From a virus, in IMG/VR virus record IMGVR_UViG_3300015373_000017, positions 1-37,008 of that record: a DNA stretch of 37,008 bases. One strand, 5' to 3'. Positions 19,777 to 30,340 of the stretch are shown in pieces (the first letter of the stretch is position 1; each line of letters begins with the position of its first letter). Position numbers and translations under genes: made by a program. A model generated the notes under the pieces. That model saw only the letters and a program-made list of their open reading frames with translations. It was not told the origin of the DNA and searched no databases.

Positions 19777-19822
19777 TTATCTGGTCTTCTGTTTGCTCTT
19801 CGTGTTGTTTTTTCAGTTAACA

Positions 19823-19859
19823 GCCCCAGACTGTGTAGGTTTGGGGCACTTGTTTTTTC
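19823..19859 (+). terminator. Rho-independent terminator of the tail operon
   Basis: Stem GCCCCAGAC (19823-19831) with GTTTGGGGC (19839-19847), loop TGTGTAG, 9 bp with one G-T pair, then ACTTGTTTTTT. Confidence 0.85.
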
Positions 19860-19866
19860 ATAGATT

Positions 19867-19900
19867 ACACTCCTTGCTTGTCCAAGTGAGGAGTGTTTTT
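19867..19900 (+). terminator. Second, tandem rho-independent terminator
   Basis: Stem ACACTCCT (19867-19874) with AGGAGTGT (19889-19896); the loop can add a small CTTG/CAAG pairing; five T residues follow the stem. Tandem arrangement would insulate the early promoter from late transcription. Confidence 0.85.
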
Positions 19901-20044
19901 CCTGTGGATTTTTCCATGAAAACCGCCCCGAATGCCGAACTTGCCATTAGCCATGACCAGCACAGGCGTTTCACATGGTTTATGTATATTAATATGGTAA
20001 AAAAAATCGGCCGAAATTCGGGAAAAAATAAATCCTACTTTAAC

Positions 20045-20074
20045 TTGTTATTAACATTTACTATGTTAATTTTG
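20045..20074 (+). promoter_or_regulatory. Bacteroidetes-type promoter for early genes
   Basis: TTG at 20045-20047, 19-nt spacer, TAATTTTG at 20067-20074. This fits the known -33 TTTG / -7 TAnnTTTG consensus of the Bacteroidetes primary sigma factor. It lies just after two terminators and 53 nt before the first early ATG. Confidence 0.75.
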
Positions 20075-20126
20075 TATCCATGTCCAAGTTGGGCAGTTAA
20101 ATTAGTAAATTAGTAAATTAGAAACT

Positions 20127-20571: not shown

Positions 20572-20760
20572 ATGACAACGAAACAAAAAGAAAAGCATCT
20601 CTCCGAAGCACCCAAATGGGGAGAAGATGCCAGGACACTCCAGAGGTCAATCTATCATTTTAGGGCAATGTTAAGAAACAAAGGCTACTTATTGCCAGCA
20701 GGCCTTTTGAAAGAATTGGATGCGAACTTGGAAGAAGCACTTAAAAAATTTACTCAATGA
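20572..20760 (+). CDS. Hypothetical early protein, 62 aa
   Basis: Basic N-terminus and two predicted helices (TLQRSIYHFRAMLRNKGYLL and LLKELDANLEEALKKF). Its stop overlaps the next start in ATGA. No family recognised. Confidence 0.6.
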   Translation: MTTKQKEKHLSEAPKWGEDARTLQRSIYHFRAMLRNKGYLLPAGLLKELDANLEEALKKFTQ

Positions 20761-20912
20761 TTTACATGCTGTTACTTATCTGCTTGATGAACACTGTTCT
20801 TTTCCAAATAATAGAAGAGACTGAAATATTCAGACAGTATTTCAAGACTTGGTTAATGCTGATTCCACCATTTGCATTAATTTCTGTCATAATTCACTTG
20901 GTAAAGACCTGA
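20757..20912 (+). CDS. Small membrane protein with two TM segments, 51 aa
   Basis: MIYMLLLICLMNTVLFQII forms one hydrophobic segment and TWLMLIPPFALISVIIHLV a second, joined by a charged loop (EETEIFRQYFK). Starts in an ATGA overlap. Its stop codon lies inside the 5' arm of the hairpin at 20907-20928. Early expression argues against a simple holin; superinfection exclusion or host-membrane targeting are alternatives. Confidence 0.6.
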   Translation: MIYMLLLICLMNTVLFQIIEETEIFRQYFKTWLMLIPPFALISVIIHLVKT

Positions 20913-20928
20913 TATTTCTATATCAGGT
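20907..20928 (+). promoter_or_regulatory. TTTCTA-loop hairpin, copy 1
   Basis: Perfect 8-bp stem ACCTGATA / TATCAGGT around hexaloop TTTCTA, 20 nt before the ATG of the 85-aa gene. Same loop as the three hairpins at 27030-27239 but a different stem. There is no clear T-tract, so it is not a standard terminator. Confidence 0.6.
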
Positions 20929-20948
20929 AATTTTTAAAACTTATAATT

Positions 20949-21206
20949 ATGACTATAAAAGAGAAATGTATTGACTTTGCTACATGGGTTGACTACAGTG
21001 GTTGGCTCAGAAATCCAAACGTGAAAGATGAGTGGGCTAAATATGAAATAGACCCACTTGACAGAGATTTAATTATTGAACCAGAAACAGTTACAAGTGA
21101 TGAGCTCTACGAAATCTATGAGAGAGAGAACTCTCGTCCCGGAGGGGAAGATTTTTTGGCTCGACCAATACAGAGAATTGGTGGAGGCAGCCAAAAAGAT
21201 AGCTAA
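20949..21206 (+). CDS. Hypothetical early protein, 85 aa
   Basis: Acidic protein with Trp/Tyr-rich N-terminus (CIDFATWVDYSGWLRN) and ITSDELYEIYE-like helix. Preceded by the TTTCTA hairpin and an A/T-rich leader. Its 3' end overlaps the next gene by up to ~90 nt in another frame. Unknown function. Confidence 0.6.
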   Translation: MTIKEKCIDFATWVDYSGWLRNPNVKDEWAKYEIDPLDRDLIIEPETVTSDELYEIYERENSRPGGEDFLARPIQRIGGGSQKDS

Positions 21207-21378
21207 AGATAAACAAACCTCTAACCTTGAAGTACACCAAATTCTAATGGACTACCAATACGAAGGTAAGTATCAGAAGAGGGGCGAGCTCGAAAGAGTC
21301 CTACTAAAAAAAATTCTGGAAATTATCGAGCCACGAGAACAGCCCGGACCTAAATATTCACAATTAGATTTATTTTAA
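21118..21378 (+). CDS. Small protein ending in a clamp-binding-like QLDLF
   Basis: 86 aa from ATG 21118; in-frame ATGs at 21100 and 21076 are alternatives. The first part is helical (DQYRELVEAAKKIAKD, HQILMDYQYEGKYQKR), the last part flexible (PREQPGPKYS). The final five residues QLDLF match the consensus by which bacterial proteins bind the DNA polymerase sliding clamp. It may be recruited to, or block, the host clamp. The motif is seen; binding is inferred. Confidence 0.6.
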   Translation: MRERTLVPEGKIFWLDQYRELVEAAKKIAKDKQTSNLEVHQILMDYQYEGKYQKRGELERVLLKKILEIIEPREQPGPKYSQLDLF

Positions 21379-21383
21379 ACAAC

Positions 21384-21710
21384 ATGAAGAAAGATTATCC
21401 AACTTACTTGGTAAACACCCAAGTACCAGCAGAATGCTTAAGGCATGATTTCGCAAGCAACAGAAGTCCATACTACGTTGAAGTTAGGCACGTATTTTTA
21501 GGAGTTTTCTCGGAGAGCGACGAGCCAATGGTAAGTACTACCATACACAATATCTCAACCCATACCCTATGGGCTATTGATTGGGCTAAATTGGCTACTA
21601 TTCTTGACGAACAAGGAAGAAATTATTTTGTAAACTTAATGAAACAAGATGATGTACAAGTACAAGAACAGGAATTGCCGAGTACTGAAGAGCCGGTACA
21701 GCAACAATAG
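21384..21710 (+). CDS. Hypothetical protein, 108 aa
   Basis: Beta-rich centre (YYVEVRHVFLGVFSESDEP), then helix and a Gln/Glu-rich flexible end (VQVQEQELPSTEEPVQQQ). Overlaps the next gene by 62 nt. No family recognised. Confidence 0.6.
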   Translation: MKKDYPTYLVNTQVPAECLRHDFASNRSPYYVEVRHVFLGVFSESDEPMVSTTIHNISTHTLWAIDWAKLATILDEQGRNYFVNLMKQDDVQVQEQELPSTEEPVQQQ

Positions 21711-21951
21711 AATTGCTCTCGTTTTAGTTGACGAAGATGGTATTCCAGAAGCTAAAGCTACAATCAACGTTGTAGAAGATACTGCCCACAAGAGGAGTGA
21801 GGTTACTATAAAGAATTATTCTGAAAATGAGGGTATGTACGAATGGCTACTGAGAAACCAAATTGTTAGACCTGCTCACAGATTTGTTTATACTGGATAC
21901 ACAAAGTGTCCAGTATGTTATCTTACTGAAACATTTATTAACAATGGATGA
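21649..21951 (+). CDS. DUF4313-like phage protein, 100 aa
   Basis: Contains RIALVLVDEDGIPEAKATINV, VTIKNYSENEGMYEWL and a closing CPVCYL, an arrangement recalled from DUF4313-type proteins of Bacteroides phages and plasmids, whose function is not known. The start at ATGATG lies inside the previous gene; the shared segment has a plausible N-terminus (MMYKYKNRNCRVL). The stop overlaps the next start by 8 nt. Confidence 0.6.
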   Translation: MMYKYKNRNCRVLKSRYSNNRIALVLVDEDGIPEAKATINVVEDTAHKRSEVTIKNYSENEGMYEWLLRNQIVRPAHRFVYTGYTKCPVCYLTETFINNG

Positions 21952-22852
21952 GACTGTAGAAATTATCCAAGAACCACAGAAGCTATCATTATTTCAGCAG
22001 GAAAAAGCTGCTATTGATATTCAGGTGGCTACTGCCAGACAATTCCCCCGAAACATTAGGCGCTCAGTAGACAACGCCATAGCAACAGTTCAGTTGACTG
22101 AAAAAGTTGCTGAAACTTGTATGTACTCTGTGCCAAGAGGTAGGGGGAAAGTTATTACCGGCCCAAGCATACACATGGCTAAAATTATTGCTCAGACGTG
22201 GGGCAATTTAAGAATGTCTAACAAGGTTATAGACATTGACCTCAAGCATGTCACTTCTCAAGCCATGTGTTGGGACTTGGAAGCAAATATAGCAATTCAA
22301 ACTGAAGTCAAACGACTAATTATTGGTAGAGAGGGTCGCTATTCTGATGATATGATTACAGTCACTGGAAATGCGGCAAACGCAATCTCTTTGAGGAATG
22401 CTATATTGGCTGTCATTCCAGAAGCAGTTACCGAAAGAGTTTATACTGCTGCCATAGAGAGAATAACTGGTAAATTGTCAGATACAAACCAGCTCACCGC
22501 CAAACGTATAGAATTGATAACTGGTTTTAGGGAATTGTATCAAGTTACAGAACAAGAAATTCTATATATCTTAGGTAAAACTGCTGTTGAGAATATCACA
22601 AAAGAGGATATTGCGGTTCTAATAGGTATCAAGGGTGGCTTACGAGATGGTGACACAACTGTAGATGAGGCTTTCAAACGTAAAAAAGTGCAGGAAAAGA
22701 ATTCTACATCTGCCAAACTGGATAGAATTATCGCTTTGATAAACGACTCTAAAACAATAGAGGAGCTTGAAAAATACAAAAAGCATATCAATTCTCCAGA
22801 AATTGCTAAACTGTATGATGAACGCTATGCTGAACTTTTAACTAAACAATAA
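21944..22852 (+). CDS. Probable phage ssDNA-annealing/recombination protein
   Basis: 302 aa from ATG 21944; the frame is open further upstream but 21944 fits the 8-nt overlap and gives a normal N-terminus (MDETVEIIQEPQ). The core (TARQFPRNIRRSVDNAIATV, then VPRGRGKVITGPSIHMAKII and MITVTGNAANAISLRNAIL) is a conserved family in Bacteroidetes phages, which I recall as RecT-like or uncharacterised. Pairing with an exonuclease 1.1 kb downstream supports single-strand annealing with end resection. PQKLSLF near the N-terminus resembles a clamp-binding peptide. Annealing activity is inferred from context. Confidence 0.5.
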   Translation: MDETVEIIQEPQKLSLFQQEKAAIDIQVATARQFPRNIRRSVDNAIATVQLTEKVAETCMYSVPRGRGKVITGPSIHMAKIIAQTWGNLRMSNKVIDIDLKHVTSQAMCWDLEANIAIQTEVKRLIIGREGRYSDDMITVTGNAANAISLRNAILAVIPEAVTERVYTAAIERITGKLSDTNQLTAKRIELITGFRELYQVTEQEILYILGKTAVENITKEDIAVLIGIKGGLRDGDTTVDEAFKRKKVQEKNSTSAKLDRIIALINDSKTIEELEKYKKHINSPEIAKLYDERYAELLTKQ

Positions 22853-22853
22853 T

Positions 22854-23186
22854 ATGGCTGAAATACAATTAACACAGTGAAAAGTAACTCATCTATGGTA
22901 TGTTGATTTTATGAAGTGTAAAAAGTATAAATGGTGCGCTGCTTATGAAAGTGGAAGATGGTATGCAGTTTCAAGAATTAATGGTAAACGAGTTAGAATG
23001 CATCGCTTTATAGTTGACCTTGTTGATAAAAATTTAGTAGTCGACCATATAGACCATAATGGACTTAATAATATGAGAGAAAATTTAAGAATTGTAACTA
23101 ATCAAATAAATTGTCAAAATAGGCGTTATAGTTTTATTTCTCAGCGAACTATACAACAAATTATAGAGGAAGATTTCTCGTATTAG
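22854..23186 (+). pseudogene. HNH endonuclease with in-frame TGA near its start
   Basis: From ATG 22854 the frame reads MAEIQLTQ, stop (TGA 22878-22880), KVTHLWYVDFMKCKKYKWCA. This aligns without gaps to the start of the HNH enzyme at 3789 (MQQIALTKGKIAFIDNEDY...), with the TGA exactly at the conserved Gly. Translation could restart at ATG 22911, giving 91 aa with a full HNH core (MHRFIV, VVDHIDHNGLNNMRENLRIV) but without the lead-in. No AP2 domain follows; the end (YSFISQRTIQQIIEEDF) is atypical. Probably a decaying homing endonuclease, unless the internal start or readthrough is used. Confidence 0.7.
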
Positions 23187-23201
23187 CTACAAACCAGAGG
23201 T

Positions 23202-23273
23202 ATGGACAACTTTAACAAAATTTTAACGAGTAGAATTTGGTGGCTACTATTCCCTAATATACCTTTAAAATAA
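23202..23273 (+). CDS. Possible 23-aa peptide
   Basis: Reads MDNFNKILTSRIWWLLFPNIPLK with a short amphipathic or hydrophobic middle. It lies in the otherwise empty 23187-23277 and its leader repeats AAAATTTTAACGA-type sequence seen also near 30270. Weak support. Confidence 0.2.
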   Translation: MDNFNKILTSRIWWLLFPNIPLK

Positions 23274-23277
23274 AAAA

Positions 23278-23472
23278 ATGAAAACAATTAATCCAGACAT
23301 TCAGATTTTTAATAGTGAAGTAGCTGCAAGACGCTATTTTACTAAAATTACTTCTGGTCATTTATTAAAAACCAGAAATGACAGTCGCTATGGTATGCAC
23401 TGGTTCGTTGACAGAAGTAAAGAAGCTGTTAGAGAGTGGCCGAATCACTATACCCTAATGGATACAAAGTAA
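23278..23472 (+). CDS. Hypothetical protein, 64 aa
   Basis: Basic protein (EVAARRYFTKITSGHLLKTRN) with a run of A before the ATG and no Shine-Dalgarno. No motif recognised. Confidence 0.55.
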   Translation: MKTINPDIQIFNSEVAARRYFTKITSGHLLKTRNDSRYGMHWFVDRSKEAVREWPNHYTLMDTK

Positions 23473-23518
23473 TTTTTTGACTATCAACCATAGGCACTCA
23501 CTTAAAAACAATTTTAAC

Positions 23519-23788
23519 ATGACATTAACAGAAGACGCTAAAAAAGCTATTGTTGACCTTGCAGAAGATTTAAGGTCAACTGTTGAAAAAATCGAGAAAA
23601 GTATTCATACCACTCTGTACCATTATGGTGACTATCTGGCAATATTTAGTCAAGTGGCGAAAAAACAAAGTACATCTGATTTCGTTATGCTTGCACTAAT
23701 TACAGCAGGAGCTAACGAAGATGGCGTAAAATGGGCTTATAGAATTCATTCTGGAAATCAGGACTTGATTGATAAAATCTTTAAATAA
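23519..23788 (+). CDS. Hypothetical helical protein, 89 aa
   Basis: Starts MTLTEDAKKAIVDLAEDL after AATTTTAAC; a longer frame from TTG 23477 is less likely. Predicted helices throughout, ending GVKWAYRIHSGNQDLIDKIF. Unknown. Confidence 0.65.
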   Translation: MTLTEDAKKAIVDLAEDLRSTVEKIEKSIHTTLYHYGDYLAIFSQVAKKQSTSDFVMLALITAGANEDGVKWAYRIHSGNQDLIDKIFK

Positions 23789-23794
23789 ACAAAT

Positions 23795-24016
23795 ATGACA
23801 GAAAGAGACAAAACTACTGTTCAGGAAATTATTTCCAAACTCGAAGCTTTAAAAGAAAAGCTTGAAGATGTTTTAAATAGACTTAATGCAGAAAAAGATG
23901 AACTTGAAGAGGACGAAGAAAACGAGACTCTTGAAGATGATATTTCTGAAATGGAAGATGCCATTGAGTCACTTGATAGTTCAATAGCTACATTAACTAA
24001 TACTTATGGAGTTTAA
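23795..24016 (+). CDS. Acidic coiled-coil protein, 73 aa
   Basis: Heptad pattern of Leu/Ile with dense Glu/Asp (LEALKEKLEDVLNRLNAEKD, ELEEDEENETLEDD). Very acidic, so it may mimic DNA or act as a partner for a DNA-binding protein such as the nuclease encoded next, whose start it overlaps by 11 nt. Function is not known. Confidence 0.65.
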   Translation: MTERDKTTVQEIISKLEALKEKLEDVLNRLNAEKDELEEDEENETLEDDISEMEDAIESLDSSIATLTNTYGV

Positions 24017-24911
24017 CAACTATCTATTCCATTGTTCTTCTCTCGGCAGTATTATGACTGAACCCAGAGGGAAGAGCAATTTGGAGAAATACAAAGAGGC
24101 ACAGGATAAGTTTAATTCTTGGAAGGAAAAATTCGAGAAGGTTAAGTTAGAACTCGATACCTTTAAAAACAAAGAAACTAAAACATACCAAAATAAGGCG
24201 CAGACTATGGGCAACTACGAAGACAAGATGTGGTTAGCTCATGAGACAATGACAACACTCGAGTATATTAAAGATGCCAAGCCTTTATCTGATACTTGCA
24301 AAAAATATTTAATGAACTTATTTGTTCAGGCTAAATATGGGCGTGTTAAGGACATTAAACTTAAGTACTGGGATAAAGGAAATATGTTAGAGGAAGATGC
24401 TTTTACGATATATTCTCGTTTAATCAAGGAATATGTTGAGAAAAATACTGTCACCAAGTCTAATCCTTATGTGGTTGGCACTATTGACTTTCCTGCAAGA
24501 GACAAGGTAATTATACATGATACTAAGGTATCTTGGGATATTTACACTTTTTGGTCAAGTCTTGCAAATGGACTTGAAGATGACTATTATTGGCAGGCTC
24601 AGGGTTATATGTGGTTGTGGGAGCTGGATGAGGCAAAAGTCATTAAGATGTTACTCGATACTCCTGATAAATTAATCGAAGCAGAAAAAAAGTCATTGCT
24701 GAGAGATTTTATTGGTAGTGAATTTCAGTATCAGGAAGCTTGTGCTGAATTGGACAAACTTCACAAGTACGATGATATTCCAGTTGAAGAAAGAATCATT
24801 GAGTTTAAGGTTGAGAGAAGTGACGAAGATATTGCTCGTATTCCCGAGAGAGTTGAAATGTGCCGAGCATGGCTAAACAGTATTAAGCCTGGAACTTATT
24901 TTACAATTTAA
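24006..24911 (+). CDS. PD-(D/E)XK exonuclease (YqaJ/RecB type)
   Basis: 301 aa. Glu129/Glu130 in DKGNMLEEDA, Asp161 in VVGTIDFPA, Asp172-Thr-Lys174 in IIHDTKVSW and Gln197/Gln199/Tyr201 in YYWQAQGYMWLW match the catalytic order of this nuclease fold (E, D, D-x-K, Q-x-x-x-Y). It probably resects double-strand ends for annealing by the protein at 21944 or degrades host DNA. The N-terminal 60 residues form a lysine-rich helix. All expected catalytic residues are present. Confidence 0.8.
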   Translation: MEFNNYLFHCSSLGSIMTEPRGKSNLEKYKEAQDKFNSWKEKFEKVKLELDTFKNKETKTYQNKAQTMGNYEDKMWLAHETMTTLEYIKDAKPLSDTCKKYLMNLFVQAKYGRVKDIKLKYWDKGNMLEEDAFTIYSRLIKEYVEKNTVTKSNPYVVGTIDFPARDKVIIHDTKVSWDIYTFWSSLANGLEDDYYWQAQGYMWLWELDEAKVIKMLLDTPDKLIEAEKKSLLRDFIGSEFQYQEACAELDKLHKYDDIPVEERIIEFKVERSDEDIARIPERVEMCRAWLNSIKPGTYFTI

Positions 24912-24915
24912 GAAT

Positions 24916-25143
24916 ATGAACTGGATAAAAAAGGGAGATTACATCTATGACGAGAACATGGATATTGTAGCAATTCTCCCAACAAACTACGATGAGACAC
25001 ATGCAAACGTAATTGTGTCAGCTCCAAAGATGCTCGAAGCTATGATTGAGTATATTGAGCGAATTGAAAGTGGCAGTCAGCCTACAAAGAAATCGTTTGA
25101 TAAATTCAAAGCAATAGTAAGCAGGATTTTGGAAGCAGCTTGA
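24916..25143 (+). CDS. Hypothetical protein, 75 aa
   Basis: Contains ANVIVSAPKMLEAMIEYIERI, a pattern of small phage proteins with a beta hairpin followed by an AP-x-ML-EA helix. That family is widespread next to recombination genes and has no assigned role. Confidence 0.65.
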   Translation: MNWIKKGDYIYDENMDIVAILPTNYDETHANVIVSAPKMLEAMIEYIERIESGSQPTKKSFDKFKAIVSRILEAA

Positions 25144-25169
25144 TTTAATCACTATTAAAATTAATAAGA

Positions 25170-25868
25170 ATGAGTGACATGGGAGAGCTCTCCACAAGAG
25201 AAGAAATTGTCAAGGGTATTAGATTTATCTGTTGCGATAACTTGCCTTTTATGAGAGAGATTGACATGGGCTATTTTCACGTAGGGATAGTAGACCCGCC
25301 ATATGGAGTTGAGGCTCACGCTTTTAATATGGGCAAAACAAGTGCCGAGCGTGCTAAATTAGACACAGTATTCAATAGGGGCTCTTGGGATGGCAAGATT
25401 CCCTCAAAGGAATATTTTGACCAACTGAGAAGAATTACAAGACAACAAGTAATCTGGGGTGGAAACTACTTTTTAGATTTCCTGCCAGCTACAGAGTGCT
25501 GTATGATTTGGGATAAAGAGCAAGCAGAAGGTCTTGGTTATGACGATTTCGAGCTTGCATGGACAAGTTTGAAAACCAAGAATATGATTTGTAGAAGGCA
25601 CAGAGTCAAGGACGCTAAAATTGAAAAGATACATACAACTCAGAAACCAGTGTACTTGTATAAATGGATTTTTTCTAAATTGATAAGTGCTGGTTATTTG
25701 AAAAAGGGACAGCGAGTCCTTGATACTCATGGAGGAAGTCACAATATAGCAATCGCAGCTTATGACTATGGAATGGAGTTAACAATATTAGAGATTAATC
25801 TCCAGTATCACTTGGATGGTATAGAACATTTTAAAAAATACACTATTCAAGGAGCACTCTTGTTATGA
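25170..25868 (+). CDS. DNA adenine-N6 methyltransferase
   Basis: 232 aa. Asp42-Pro-Pro-Tyr45 in VDPPYG is the catalytic motif IV. WDKEQAEGLGYDDFELAWTS and IHTTQKPVYLYKWI are standard for phage methyltransferases. The AdoMet motif follows near the C-terminus as VLDTHGGSHNIAIAA, with Gly-Gly-Ser-His in place of the usual Gly-Ser-Gly, before ELTILEI. Motif IV before motif I is the circular order of this subgroup. Likely protects phage DNA from restriction; no cognate nuclease was seen. ATGA overlap to the next gene. Confidence 0.85.
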   Translation: MSDMGELSTREEIVKGIRFICCDNLPFMREIDMGYFHVGIVDPPYGVEAHAFNMGKTSAERAKLDTVFNRGSWDGKIPSKEYFDQLRRITRQQVIWGGNYFLDFLPATECCMIWDKEQAEGLGYDDFELAWTSLKTKNMICRRHRVKDAKIEKIHTTQKPVYLYKWIFSKLISAGYLKKGQRVLDTHGGSHNIAIAAYDYGMELTILEINLQYHLDGIEHFKKYTIQGALLL

Positions 25869-26422
25869 TGGATATTGAAATTCCAGAATCATCTCTGATA
25901 AGATTTATTGGATACGATAGAGAAAAGAGGACTTTGGCTATCGCATTTCACAAGCAGGGTTGGCAACAGGATAGAATCTACGTAGATGTGCCAATATCTC
26001 TCTTTGAGGAATTTAAGAACTCGCAGTCAAAAGGTAAATTCTTTTTAGATAACATAAAAAATAAACTAAAAACTATGGCTAAGGGAAAAAACAATCAATT
26101 TGACATGATAATAGATGTCAGAATAGATGTTACCAAGCTTATGAAGGAGTGGCTCTTCAAAGGCGAAAAAGGTGTATATGCTGATTTGACTCTGTTTTAT
26201 CATAATGACCAAGACCCAGAATATAAGACAAATGGGTTTGTAACTCAGAAAGTTCCAAAAGCAGTCTGGGAAAATGATAGGAATGCTCGAGGCCCGATTC
26301 TTGGAAATATAAAGAATTGGGAAACTGTCAAGAAAGAAGTGGATAAAGACGCTATTCCTGGAGCAACAGAGGTCGCAACAGTACAAACTAATCAAGACTG
26401 GCAAGATGATTTACCATTTTAA
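25865..26422 (+). CDS. KTSC domain fused to SSB-like protein
   Basis: 185 aa in one frame. Residues about 5-65 match a KTSC domain (LIRFIGYDREKRTLAIAF, then YVDVPISLFEEFKNSQSKGKFF). Residues 71-185 form a separate beta-rich domain (FDMIIDVRIDVTKLM, GVYADLTLFYHNDQD, GPILGNIKNWE) ending in DDLPF, the acidic tip by which single-strand binding proteins recruit partners. An internal ATG at 26075, preceded by AAACTAAAAACT like other starts here, could yield the SSB-like part alone. SSB function fits the context with nuclease and annealing protein. Confidence 0.65.
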   Translation: MMDIEIPESSLIRFIGYDREKRTLAIAFHKQGWQQDRIYVDVPISLFEEFKNSQSKGKFFLDNIKNKLKTMAKGKNNQFDMIIDVRIDVTKLMKEWLFKGEKGVYADLTLFYHNDQDPEYKTNGFVTQKVPKAVWENDRNARGPILGNIKNWETVKKEVDKDAIPGATEVATVQTNQDWQDDLPF

Positions 26423-26570
26423 TTTCCAGTATTGGACTTCTGAAAAAACAATCAAGAAAACCGTAGCTGTCGAAGCTGACTCATTTATGGAGGCAAGAGA
26501 GAAAGCTAATAAACTATTTTTAAAATGGGTAAAAAAATTCTATGGGAAAAAGATATGCTCTTCGAGATAA
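26406..26570 (+). CDS. Small basic protein, 54 aa
   Basis: Reads MIYHFNFQYWTSEKTIKKTV and continues with a helix (SFMEAREKANKLFLKWVKKF). Overlaps the SSB-like gene by 17 nt and the next gene by 29 nt. The pattern, beta strands then a helix, is common for small phage proteins of unknown role. Confidence 0.55.
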   Translation: MIYHFNFQYWTSEKTIKKTVAVEADSFMEAREKANKLFLKWVKKFYGKKICSSR

Positions 26571-26763
26571 GATTCGCAACAATCTTGGCTTATTTTTGGC
26601 AGTGGTCGGAGAATTAGTTCTATTGTCATGCAGTTCACCAGAGCAACACAGAATTGAGATGATACATAATTATAGAATATTGAGTGACAAGGCTATGAAA
26701 GTTAATAACTGGGATAGCGTGTATTACTATAATAGAAAAATTGATTCTTTAACTGTAAACTGA
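26542..26763 (+). CDS. Phage-encoded lipoprotein, 73 aa
   Basis: Basic n-region (MGKRYALRDKIRNN), hydrophobic core (LGLFLAVVGELVLL) and lipobox LLSC with Cys30, so signal peptidase II processing is expected. The mature part of about 44 residues is polar (SSPEQHRIEMIHNYRILSDK). Early phage lipoproteins often block superinfection at the envelope; that role is an inference here. Confidence 0.7.
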   Translation: MGKRYALRDKIRNNLGLFLAVVGELVLLSCSSPEQHRIEMIHNYRILSDKAMKVNNWDSVYYYNRKIDSLTVN

Positions 26764-26768
26764 AAAAC

Positions 26769-26996
26769 ATGAGCAATGATTTAAGAAACGTAATTAAGCT
26801 GTTTGACAGCCAGTATAAATATCGAGGTAGTCTGTGGATAAATGATGCCAAGTTCTATTGGAAATCAAGAGGTAGAAGAAAGTGGTTACCAATTTCTTCT
26901 AAAACTATTGCTGATTTACTTGATGGTCATTTTGGCTTTGATGAAAATAGAATAGATTATTTAACAGAACAGTCTATCCAAGATGTTTTATCGTAA
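26769..26996 (+). CDS. Hypothetical protein, 75 aa
   Basis: Basic centre (FYWKSRGRRKWLPISSKTIA) then acidic end. KTIADLL-type helix could be part of a small DNA-binding fold, but no family is clear. It is the last gene before the hairpin region. Confidence 0.55.
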   Translation: MSNDLRNVIKLFDSQYKYRGSLWINDAKFYWKSRGRRKWLPISSKTIADLLDGHFGFDENRIDYLTEQSIQDVLS

Positions 26997-27029
26997 GTTT
27001 TTGGTTGTATATAAGTTTTGTACATAAGT

Positions 27030-27049
27030 TTAGCTGTTTCTACGGCTAA
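27030..27049 (+). promoter_or_regulatory. TTTCTA-loop hairpin, copy 2
   Basis: Stem TTAGCTG / CGGCTAA (7 bp with one T-G pair) around loop TTTCTA. The 15-nt core GCTGTTTCTACGGCT is repeated exactly at 27220-27234. Confidence 0.6.
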
Positions 27050-27061
27050 TGTGATGAAATA

Positions 27062-27085
27062 TACCAGGTGTTTCTACACTTGGTA
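27062..27085 (+). promoter_or_regulatory. TTTCTA-loop hairpin, copy 3
   Basis: Stem TACCAGGTG / CACTTGGTA (9 bp, one G-T pair) around loop TTTCTA, 12 nt before the ATG of a 28-aa membrane peptide. A 10-codon ORF (27054-27086, MKYTRCFYTW) runs through it, so translation there would melt the hairpin. Confidence 0.65.
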
Positions 27086-27097
27086 AAACTTTAAACT

Positions 27098-27184
27098 ATG
27101 ATTATTTTCTATATTATCCTATTAGTCATTGCTGTTATTGGTATTATTTACTTAACAGTTCTGGCTCTTAAAAGACCAAAATAA
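27098..27184 (+). CDS. 28-aa membrane peptide
   Basis: MIIFYIILLVIAVIGIIYLT is one hydrophobic helix, followed by VLALKRPK with a basic end. It lies between two TTTCTA hairpins, preceded by AACTTTAAACT like other starts in this phage. The size and charge resemble the 32-aa peptide at 17656. It is too short for a confident call, but the leader style supports translation. Confidence 0.5.
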   Translation: MIIFYIILLVIAVIGIIYLTVLALKRPK

Positions 27185-27204
27185 CTTGATGTGTAAATCA
27201 GGTT
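27183..27204 (+). promoter_or_regulatory. Hairpin after the 28-aa peptide
   Basis: Stem AACTTGAT / ATCAGGTT (8 bp, one T-G pair) with loop GTGTAA, beginning in the peptide's stop codon. No T-tract follows, so a processing or attenuation role is as likely as termination. Confidence 0.45.
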
Positions 27205-27213
27205 AGCATATAC

Positions 27214-27239
27214 ATACTGGCTGTTTCTACGGCTGGTAT
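27214..27239 (+). promoter_or_regulatory. TTTCTA-loop hairpin, copy 4
   Basis: Stem ATACTGGCTG / CGGCTGGTAT (10 bp with T-G wobbles) around loop TTTCTA, 27 nt before the ATG of the 204-aa gene. Confidence 0.65.
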
Positions 27240-27266
27240 AACATTTTAACTGAAAAATCAATATAG

Positions 27267-27881
27267 ATGGATTTACAATTTAATGTCTCAGAAGAGAGAC
27301 AGCAACTATGGATTGAGCGATTAAATAACTCAATCATCGAGACCCAGTGCAAGCTTGAAGAAAAATCAGCTGGATTTGCCGAACTTGAACAAAGGTATCT
27401 CTCTTGGAAAATGGAGATTGATAAACTCAACTCTATGTTAATGGCAGATAAAGCAGACCTTGAAACATTTGTTCAGGCAAGCAAAGTAAAAGAGACAAAA
27501 CCATTGGTTAGGGTCAAGCCTGGAATAAAGAAGTTTTCACAGGCTACCGAAGATAAGTGGAAATCGTCTGGCTGGATTAGATGGGAAGAAATTATAAGAC
27601 CTGCTCTCAAAGAGAATGGGCGATTTATGGAGAATCGAGAATTATGGAAGTATCTACTGCACACAAAGCGAGTAAATGATGATGATGTAACTCATAGAAG
27701 ATTTGTGGTAGCATTTAGTTCAAGGAGTAATTCGTGGAAAGCACACTTAGGTCCGAATGACATTAGAAAGATTGGACTCAAGGAGTGGTTTGATGGAGAA
27801 GTTATCAAGCAAGAACATCTTAAAGACTTTTTAAATAGCAAAGCTCATGAAAGCAGTAGTCGTGTCTATGCAAGTGCCTGA
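27267..27881 (+). CDS. Coiled-coil protein with C-terminal helical domain, 204 aa
   Basis: Residues 1-75 form a coiled coil (LWIERLNNSIIETQCKLEEK). A basic linker (VRVKPGIKKF) leads to a domain with WIRWEEIIRPALKENGRFM, ENRELWKYLLHT and HRRFVVAFSSRSNSWKAHL, which looks like a winged-helix or HARE-like fold. It may bind DNA. It is the first sizeable gene after the hairpin array. Overlaps the next gene by 35 nt. Family not recognised. Confidence 0.6.
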   Translation: MDLQFNVSEERQQLWIERLNNSIIETQCKLEEKSAGFAELEQRYLSWKMEIDKLNSMLMADKADLETFVQASKVKETKPLVRVKPGIKKFSQATEDKWKSSGWIRWEEIIRPALKENGRFMENRELWKYLLHTKRVNDDDVTHRRFVVAFSSRSNSWKAHLGPNDIRKIGLKEWFDGEVIKQEHLKDFLNSKAHESSSRVYASA

Positions 27882-28723: not shown

Positions 28724-28733
28724 GTGTTCTGGA

Positions 28734-28796
28734 AAGGAGGCATGGAGGCTGAAACCGTGAGGTATTTCAGTTCTGGTTCGATACCAGACCTCCTTC
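28734..28796 (+). ncRNA. tRNA-like RNA without D-arm
   Basis: A perfect 7-bp acceptor-like stem AAGGAGG (28734-28740) / CCTCCTT (28789-28795) and a canonical T-arm TCTGG-TTCGATA-CCAGA (28772-28788) directly joined to it. In place of D- and anticodon arms there is a hairpin CTGAAACC / GGTATTTCAG (28749-28770) with GTGA loop and a 2-nt bulge. At 62-63 nt it is too short for a normal tRNA and has no valid anticodon loop. A tRNA mimic or a decayed tRNA are both possible. Confidence 0.6.
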
Positions 28797-28816
28797 TTTC
28801 TTCTTTTGTAATGTTT

Positions 28817-28845
28817 GCCCCGTCAGTGAGTGGGCGGGGCTTTTT
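28817..28845 (+). terminator. Rho-independent terminator before the glycosyltransferase
   Basis: Stem GCCCCG (28817-28822) / CGGGGC (28835-28840), 12-nt loop, five T. It lies 21 nt after the tRNA-like RNA and 7 nt before the next ATG, so it could also act as an attenuator. Confidence 0.75.
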
Positions 28846-28852
28846 ATCTCTT

Positions 28853-29743
28853 ATGAGTCCACAATACCCAGTCTACATCATATCGAAAGGTAGATGGAGA
28901 ATCAGGCTAACCGCCAATACACTTGAAAGATTTAATCTACAATTCTTCACAGTAATTGAGGAATCTGAGTGGGTCATGTACGCTAACGAGCGAAGACGTG
29001 GAGAGCAATTTCTAATTTTACCAGAACAATATCTTAAAGATTATGATACCTGTGACAATATACCCTATGGAGCAAAATCAGTTGGGCCTGGAGCAGCAAG
29101 GAACTACTGTTGGGAACATTCTATTAGTAATGGATATACAAGTCACTGGGTCATGGACGACAACATTAGTGCATTCTTCAGACAAAATAGAAATTTCCAA
29201 GTACCTGTCACAAGTGGCACAGTACTTAGAATCATGGAGGATTTTTGCGATAGATACGATAACGTGGCTATTGCCGGACCAAACTACGACTTCTTTGCTG
29301 ATGCAAAAGCTAAAATGCCTCCCTACGTACTCAACACCAGAATCTATTCATGCTTATTAATACGTAATTCGATACCCTTTAGATGGCGAGCACGCTATAA
29401 TGAAGACACAGACCTCTCCCTACGAGCCCTTAAATCTGGACTTGTCACAGTTCAATTTAATGCTTTCCTACAGGAAAAGGCTACTACCCAAACCATTGGT
29501 GGTGGCAACACCAGAGAGTTCTATGAAGTAGAGGGTACTTCACCCAAATCAGAGATGTTAGTTAAACTACACCCGGACGTATCACGTCTGATGGAGCGCT
29601 TTAACCGTGCCCATCACTACGTAGACTACCGGGCATTTCGGCTCAATCGCCTCAAAAGAAAGGTGGGAATTGAGATTCCAGATAGAATAAACAACTATGG
29701 TATGAAACTAATAAATGTTAAGACAAATGAAGAAATCAACTAA
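28853..29743 (+). CDS. TET-associated-type glycosyltransferase (TAGT-like)
   Basis: 296 aa from ATG 28853; the frame is open upstream through the terminator and RNA, which argues for this start. GT-A type features: YPVYIISKGRW at the N-terminus, PGAARNYCWEH, Asp102-Asp103-Asn104 in WVMDDNISAFFR (metal/nucleotide-sugar site) and RYNEDTDLSLR near residue 190. This set matches my recall of the TAGT family, which glycosylates hydroxymethylated pyrimidines in phage DNA. No TET/JBP dioxygenase or nucleotide hydroxymethylase is in the window. Codon use is richer in C than in its neighbours, suggesting recent acquisition. Confidence 0.7.
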   Translation: MSPQYPVYIISKGRWRIRLTANTLERFNLQFFTVIEESEWVMYANERRRGEQFLILPEQYLKDYDTCDNIPYGAKSVGPGAARNYCWEHSISNGYTSHWVMDDNISAFFRQNRNFQVPVTSGTVLRIMEDFCDRYDNVAIAGPNYDFFADAKAKMPPYVLNTRIYSCLLIRNSIPFRWRARYNEDTDLSLRALKSGLVTVQFNAFLQEKATTQTIGGGNTREFYEVEGTSPKSEMLVKLHPDVSRLMERFNRAHHYVDYRAFRLNRLKRKVGIEIPDRINNYGMKLINVKTNEEIN

Positions 29744-30246: not shown

Positions 30247-30292
30247 ATTTTAATCAAGTTTTAACAATTTTAACGAAATTTTAATTGGAACT

Positions 30293-30340
30293 ATGAAATT
30301 ACTACCTTATTTTTGTTTTTTACAAAAACAAAAAATTTAA
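30293..30340 (+). promoter_or_regulatory. Hairpin with 15-codon leader ORF
   Basis: An 11-bp perfect stem TTTTTGTTTTT (30310-30320) / AAAAACAAAAA (30324-30334), loop TAC, lies 8 nt before ATG 30343. A leader ORF 30293-30340 (MKLLPYFCFLQKQKI) runs through it, preceded by AACT like real starts. Upstream are four AATTTTAA-like repeats (30241-30285). Translation of the leader would open the hairpin. Confidence 0.4.

What the first reader, a model, noticed from the sequence alone, without database searches (positions are those of the whole stretch)
20907..27239. Four hairpins with an invariant TTTCTA hexaloop and differing stems in early leaders
Hairpins at 20907-20928, 27030-27049, 27062-27085 and 27214-27239 share exactly the loop TTTCTA but have different stems (ACCTGATA, TTAGCTG, TACCAGGTG, ATACTGGCTG), each matched by compensating bases including G-T pairs. 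Conserved loop with covarying stems is the mark of a selected RNA. Three lie 12-27 nt before an ATG (85-aa, 28-aa and 204-aa genes). No T-tract follows, so they are not ordinary terminators. They could be operators for an RNA-binding protein, translational switches or processing sites. I know of no described motif that fits.
Basis: partly seen in the sequence, partly recalled or inferred. Interest (0 to 1): 0.85.

Follow-up and report, generated by a model that had tools for sequence, protein, structure and literature searches.

The report
Terminator-type RNA hairpins between phage genes
A phage of the Bacteroidota places four short RNA hairpins with the same loop (UUUCUA) between its early genes; the same hairpin is a common transcription-terminator hairpin in one bacterial family (Chitinophagaceae), so it is probably a borrowed host-type punctuation mark rather than a wholly new signal.

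Summary
The four hairpins are exactly where stated. They are the only TTTCTA hairpins of 5 or more pairs in the window, and 0 of 300 shuffles gave four hairpins sharing a loop. The loop is better read as a UUCU tetraloop closed by an invariant U-A pair. Stems covary across copies and phages. In ~1.1 Mb of relatives found by the primase, no TTTCTA hairpin of 6 or more pairs exists, so the element is not inherited with this replication module. It recurs in unrelated phage groups (L102, L153, the L019 group), again just before a start codon. The decisive result: the same hairpin serves as an intrinsic-terminator hairpin in the family of Sediminibacterium roseum (Chitinophagaceae). Model hits: 15/39 genomes there, 0/37 in another family. 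Exact 14-mer: 19 hits, most terminator-like, against 12 hits with no terminator seen in the family of Capnocytophaga. Best explanation: a host-type terminator hairpin reused between cistrons of the early operon, mostly with a decayed U-tract, giving leaky termination, pausing or mRNA-end protection. In this phage termination is inferred, not shown: three of four copies lack a usable U-tract. A leader hairpin or protein-binding operator is not excluded. Closest precedent: CUUCGG hairpins of T4. Interest moderate.

The parts
20907..20928 (+). Hairpin 1: ACCTGATA-TTTCTA-TATCAGGT, 8 bp; followed by AATTTTTAAAACTTATAATT then ATG; its 5' arm contains the stop codon of the 51-aa gene
   Evidence: terminator-like; 31.6 bits
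27030..27049 (+). Hairpin 2: TTAGCTG-TTTCTA-CGGCTAA, 7 bp; tandem with hairpin 3; no T-tract
   Evidence: 32.2 bits
27062..27085 (+). Hairpin 3: TACCAGGTG-TTTCTA-CACTTGGTA, 9 bp; 12 nt before ATG of the 28-aa gene; followed by AAACTTTAAACT
   Evidence: 33.1 bits
27214..27239 (+). Hairpin 4: ATACTGGCTG-TTTCTA-CGGCTGGTAT, 10 bp; 27 nt before ATG of the 204-aa gene; followed by AACATTTTAAC
   Evidence: 38.6 bits
20757..20912 (+). 51-aa hydrophobic (probably two-TM) gene upstream of hairpin 1
   Evidence: TM reading by eye
20949..21206 (+). 85-aa gene downstream of hairpin 1, no Pfam match
27098..27184 (+). 28-aa single-TM-like, C-terminally basic peptide gene between hairpins 3 and 4 (MIIFYIILLVIAVIGIIYLTVLALKRPK)
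   Evidence: TM reading by eye
27267..27881 (+). 204-aa gene downstream of hairpin 4, no PHROG or Pfam match

Best explanation
The four elements are RNA hairpins of a type used for intrinsic transcription termination in the Bacteroidota family Chitinophagaceae: a G+C-containing stem capped by a preferred loop, UUUCUA (a UUCU tetraloop closed by U-A). The phage carries them between co-directional early genes, where they most likely act as weak, leaky terminator or pause hairpins that also leave a protected mRNA end, setting the relative output of neighbouring early genes. The shared hairpin type is shown. Action as partial terminator or RNA-end hairpin in this phage is inferred, as is a Chitinophagaceae host.
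For: Non-random and selected; covariation score 0.598 vs shuffled 0.221, 7 pairs with two-sided changes. Same hairpin in Chitinophagaceae: model R1 hits 15/39 genomes (16/39 when centred on S. roseum) vs 0/37 in the family of G080 (family named through); hits look like terminators (e.g. CCCCGGTG-TTTCTA-CGCCGGGG tttcttttt; AAGCCCCGATG-TTTCTA-CATTGGGGCTT ttctttt) and mostly lie 11-136 nt after a stop codon. Exact GCTGTTTCTACAGC in 80 genomes each: 19 hits vs 2 for the reversed control in Chitinophagaceae; 7 pass a strict stem-plus-T-tract test and 5 more are strong or interrupted stems by eye. In the family of Capnocytophaga 12 hits, none a terminator among the 11 displayed, mostly repeats of one context. 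TTCT is the commonest terminator tetraloop in two Chitinophagaceae genomes (6/80) and absent elsewhere in the phylum sample (0/87). S. roseum and phage L102 carry the identical GGCGGCTG-TTTCTA-CGGCTGCC. Other phages carry it with full T-tracts (L153, L019 group). Loop control: TTTCTA gave 6 of 30 viral hits with stems of 8 or more (4 families), a permuted loop 0 of 12.
Against: Copies 2-4 lack an immediate U-tract, and copy 1 has it two bases late. The phage has canonical T-tract hairpins with other loops at the end of its late genes (gap 19777-20126), so these are not its standard terminators. Three of four hairpins end 12-27 nt before a start codon, as in L102, L153 and the L019 group, whereas host copies are not clustered there. 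The host of this phage is unknown; its nearest primase relatives are phages of Flavobacteriaceae. R1 was trained partly on a Chitinophagaceae sequence, and two of the six TTCT terminators were preselected.
Confidence: 0.5

Rival explanations
1. Leader hairpins: structures just upstream of the 30S footprint that insulate the SD-less translation start from upstream sequence and stabilise or punctuate the polycistronic mRNA after processing; termination is not involved.
For: Hairpin ends 12-27 nt before ATG in the window and 13-22 nt in L102, L153 and the L019 group. The window and L102 share a downstream box CTTTAAA(A)CT(T)ATG although L102 was found without using it. No U-tract in copies 2-4.
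Against: Does not by itself explain why the loop is invariant or why the same loop is a terminator loop in one bacterial family. Intergenic gaps are short, so closeness to the ATG is partly forced.
Confidence: 0.28
2. Operator for an RNA-binding protein of phage or host that reads the UUUCUA loop and represses, activates or antiterminates early genes.
For: The loop is invariant including its U-A closing pair; one lineage of bacteria prefers this loop in terminators, which plain thermodynamics would not predict; tandem copies before a tiny membrane-peptide gene.
Against: No candidate protein found. The element is absent from primase relatives and present as single copies in unrelated phages, which is not what a phage-encoded regulator and its operators would give. 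Most copies elsewhere look like plain terminators.
Confidence: 0.14
3. Chance recurrence of a 6-nt loop.
For: Short motif; TTTCTA itself is not over-represented in the window.
Against: 0 of 300 shuffles; none in 1.09 Mb of relatives; permuted-loop control empty; bimodal stem lengths in the viral hits.
Confidence: 0.02

Closest known systems
CUUCGG (UUCG-tetraloop) hairpins of bacteriophage T4 and E. coli intrinsic terminators (Tuerk et al. 1988; cited in PMC3972237)
   Same: One favoured loop on varying stems, recurrent in a phage genome and also frequent in the host's intrinsic terminators; reported in association with several processes.
   Different: Different loop (UUUCUA, i.e. UUCU closed by U-A), restricted here to a Bacteroidota family and some phages; I know of no special stability of the UUCU loop; most copies in the window lack a U-tract.
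Rho-independent (intrinsic) terminators of Chitinophagaceae
   Same: Same stem-loop, same loop letters, same strand; L102's hairpin is identical to one in Sediminibacterium roseum.
   Different: Host copies mostly end a gene and carry a T-tract; window copies lie between co-directional genes just before a start codon, with weak or no T-tract.
Hairpin-cluster or U-tract-less intrinsic terminators (Gupta and Pal 2021, PMC8355165)
   Same: Tandem hairpins 12 nt apart (27030-27085) and hairpins without poly-U fit that proposed class.
   Different: No conserved loop is part of that proposal as far as read here; the claim rests on RNA-seq inference.
boxB/nut-type antitermination hairpins of lambdoid phages (from memory)
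   Same: Several copies of a short hairpin with a constant loop in early leaders.
   Different: No boxA-like partner sought or found, stems not conserved, no N-like protein identified.

Membership tests
Intrinsic (Rho-independent) terminator | Stable hairpin in the transcript | tested here: met
   MFE -11.5 to -22.7 kcal/mol for the window leaders, z -2.5 to -4.0
Intrinsic (Rho-independent) terminator | U-tract immediately 3' of the stem | tested here: not met
   Copies 2, 3, 4: TGTGATG, AAACTTT, AACATTTT; copy 1 AATTTTT is borderline. Met in L153, the L019 group and host copies
Intrinsic (Rho-independent) terminator | RNA 3' ends form there | not testable with these tools
   needs term-seq
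Chitinophagaceae UUUCUA-loop terminator hairpins (defined here) | Stem of 7 or more pairs with loop TTTCTA on the sense strand, intergenic | tested here: met
   for the window; for the hosts
Chitinophagaceae UUUCUA-loop terminator hairpins (defined here) | The phage infects that family | not tested
   host unknown; inferred from the hairpin only
Rfam RNA families | Match at gathering score | tested here: not met
   Searches (window; seven viral loci): none; only chance-level matches
boxB/nut antitermination site | boxA next to boxB and a phage N-like protein | not tested
   no dedicated search was made

The most novel reading that the evidence does not exclude
UUUCUA-capped hairpins are read by a lineage-specific RNA-binding or termination factor of Chitinophagaceae, and phages of that lineage plant the same hairpin, stripped of its U-tract, in early mRNA leaders (for example of tiny membrane peptides) to recruit that factor as a regulator or stabiliser.
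Probability: 0.15. Interest if true: 0.78.

Novelty: new variant of a known kind. Interest (0 to 1): 0.45.

Why it matters
Terminator and leader hairpins are barely mapped in Bacteroidota outside Bacteroides. A family-specific terminator loop shared with phages would give a sequence handle for predicting transcript ends, a hint for assigning orphan phages to hosts, and a directly testable question: why does one lineage favour UUUCUA caps when thermodynamics alone does not predict it?

Tried and rejected
Hairpin promoter for a virion RNA polymerase (N4/crAss-like): no such polymerase was identified among the proteins searched, and the phage is of siphovirus type. Known RNA family: no Rfam match. 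RbpB-type motif of Bacteroides: that motif is a 41-nt sequence in sRNAs, and the passages read give no UUUCUA link. Inheritance with the phage lineage: rejected, 80 primase-related loci have no such hairpin. General Bacteroidota terminator loop: rejected, AGGC..TTTCTA..GCCTTTT found in 4 of 247 genomes vs 3 for a permuted loop, and 0 of 87 terminator tetraloops in other lineages. Direct relatives of the adjacent proteins: none found in viral contigs. A 17-mer scan of genome contigs gave mostly coding-like chance hits plus the Sediminibacterium copy. The loop equals the 3' tail of 16S rRNA in some bacteria (memory): noted, not testable here, a 6-nt match proves nothing.

Full report
Observation. 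The four hairpins are present as described. They are the only TTTCTA sites among 39 with 5 or more closing pairs. Dinucleotide shuffles never gave four hairpins with a common 6-nt loop (0 of 300), and never more than one with TTTCTA. In 88 sequences, the window plus about 1.2 Mb of related phage DNA, only the window has one loop of 5 or more nt on three different stems. RNA folding closes the U and A of the loop, giving a UUCU tetraloop. Three hairpins end 20, 12 and 27 nt before ATGs; the fourth is in tandem with hairpin 3.

Setting. The window is a 37-kb virus record with siphovirus-type structural genes and an early region with glycosyltransferase, exonuclease, helicase and VirE-type primase. 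The best primase matches in cultured phages are 36% identical (Cellulophaga phage phi46:1). Nothing similar at DNA level is in the phage collection. The host is unknown.

Relatives. Eighty loci found with a primase alignment contain no TTTCTA hairpin of 6 or more pairs in 1.09 Mb, and the model R1 finds only weak matches in the fifty or so longest. So the element does not travel with this replication module. Pattern scans of viral contigs, filtered on stem length, found the element in unrelated groups: L102 (GGCGGCTG/CGGCTGCC, then ATCTTTAAAACTTATGG), the L019 group (CCCCGGCTG/CGGCTGGGG, then TTTCTTTTT and an ATG 22 nt on; ten aligned loci with a T-A to C-G change in the outer pair), L153/L135/L154 (GGCGGGCTG/CGGCCTGCC, then TTTTTT and an ATG 18 nt on, before a gene read here as a YqaJ-type exonuclease, not tested), L146 and L149. 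Stem lengths were bimodal (mostly 3-6 for chance hits, 8-11 for real ones). A permuted-loop control scan gave 12 hits with at most 6 pairs. Eleven hairpins aligned without gaps show 7 pairs with changes on both sides and a covariation score of 0.598 (shuffled 0.221); this set was chosen for having stems, so it illustrates rather than proves covariation.

Bacterial hosts. A covariance model (R1) searched in 395 Bacteroidota genomes rang in 7, one of them Sediminibacterium roseum, whose hairpin equals that of phage L102. In the family of G032 it rang in 15 of 39 genomes, in the family of G080 in 0 of 37. The family of G032 is the family of S. roseum, because the same genomes are drawn; NCBI taxonomy places S. 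roseum in Chitinophagaceae; 16S identity of G284 to S. roseum is 90.1%. The sequences are intrinsic-terminator-like: A-rich 5' flank, stem, TTTCTA, T-tract on the same strand, mostly 11-136 nt after a stop codon and often before a convergent gene end. The exact 14-mer GCTGTTTCTACAGC is found 19 times in 80 Chitinophagaceae genomes (reversed control 2): 7 pass a strict stem-plus-T-tract test and 5 more are strong or interrupted stems called by eye. In 80 genomes of the family of Capnocytophaga it is found 12 times, with no terminator among the 11 that could be displayed (Fisher P = 0.0004 with all 12). TTCT is the commonest terminator tetraloop in two Chitinophagaceae genomes (6 of 80; 4 of 78 without preselected ones) against 0 of 87 in other lineages. 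It is not a general Bacteroidota habit.

Interpretation. The simplest reading is that the phage uses a hairpin type that its likely host lineage uses for terminators. Terminators within operons that have lost part of the U-tract become leaky punctuation: partial termination, pausing, or a 3'-end-protecting stem for the upstream gene. Against full equation with terminators: copies 2-4 have no proper U-tract; the phage has canonical T-tract hairpins with other loops in the gap 19777-20126; and phage copies keep close to the next start codon. In two unrelated phages (window hairpin 3 and L102) the next gene, 12-13 nt away, encodes a tiny hydrophobic peptide with a basic tail and a similar leader CTTTAAA(A)CT(T)ATG. 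A leader role therefore remains a serious rival. A loop-binding factor is the most novel possibility; it would explain both the invariance of the loop and its lineage specificity.

Known things. The nearest precedent is the CUUCGG hairpin of T4 and of E. coli terminators (Tuerk et al. 1988, cited in PMC3972237). U-tract-less and clustered hairpin terminators have been proposed from RNA-seq (PMC8355165). Literature searches in the held library found no description of a UUUCUA terminator loop in Chitinophagaceae or their phages; most subscription papers are not held.

Limits. Host assignment is inferred from the hairpin alone. No transcript data exist for this contig.

Noticed in passing
window 27098-27184; L102 (minus strand, 13 nt after its hairpin); window 20757-20912: Tiny hydrophobic peptide genes adjoin the hairpins: 28 aa (MIIFYIILLVIAVIGIIYLTVLALKRPK), 41 aa in L102 (MEDFTKKLIEPHWMDGVWWGLLIVAVVYVLYLMFKINQTRK) and a 51-aa probable two-TM protein whose stop codon lies inside hairpin 1. 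The 41-aa peptide has no match in the phage collection.
   Followed up: partly
L284, L285, L287, L292, L297, L322-L325, L327 (reverse strand): Long (GT)n tracts followed by AT repeats recur in many phages related by primase; function unknown.
   Followed up: no
window 19777-20126: Two strong hairpins with T-tracts and other loops (GCCCCAGAC...GTTTGGGGC ACTTGTTTTTT; ACACTCCTTG...AGGAGTGT TTTTCC) at the end of the late genes, apparently the canonical terminators (read by eye).
   Followed up: no
window 23187-23277, 30247-30312, 27240-27250: TTTTAAC/TTTTAA repeats recur in leaders of this phage (e.g. AGTTTTAACAATTTTAACGAAATTTTAA), with or without a hairpin.
   Followed up: no
window 27005-27030: Imperfect tandem repeat TTGTATATAAGTT/TTGTACATAAGTT just upstream of hairpin 2, possibly a promoter region.
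   Followed up: no
L232, L444, L448, L476, L479: The sequence GGCAAGCAATCGTT directly precedes TTTCTA terminators in several Chitinophagaceae genomes, suggesting a conserved small RNA or gene end there.
   Followed up: no
window 28724-29743: TET-associated glycosyltransferase (TAGT, Pfam PF20691), suggesting hypermodified bases in the phage DNA.
   Followed up: no
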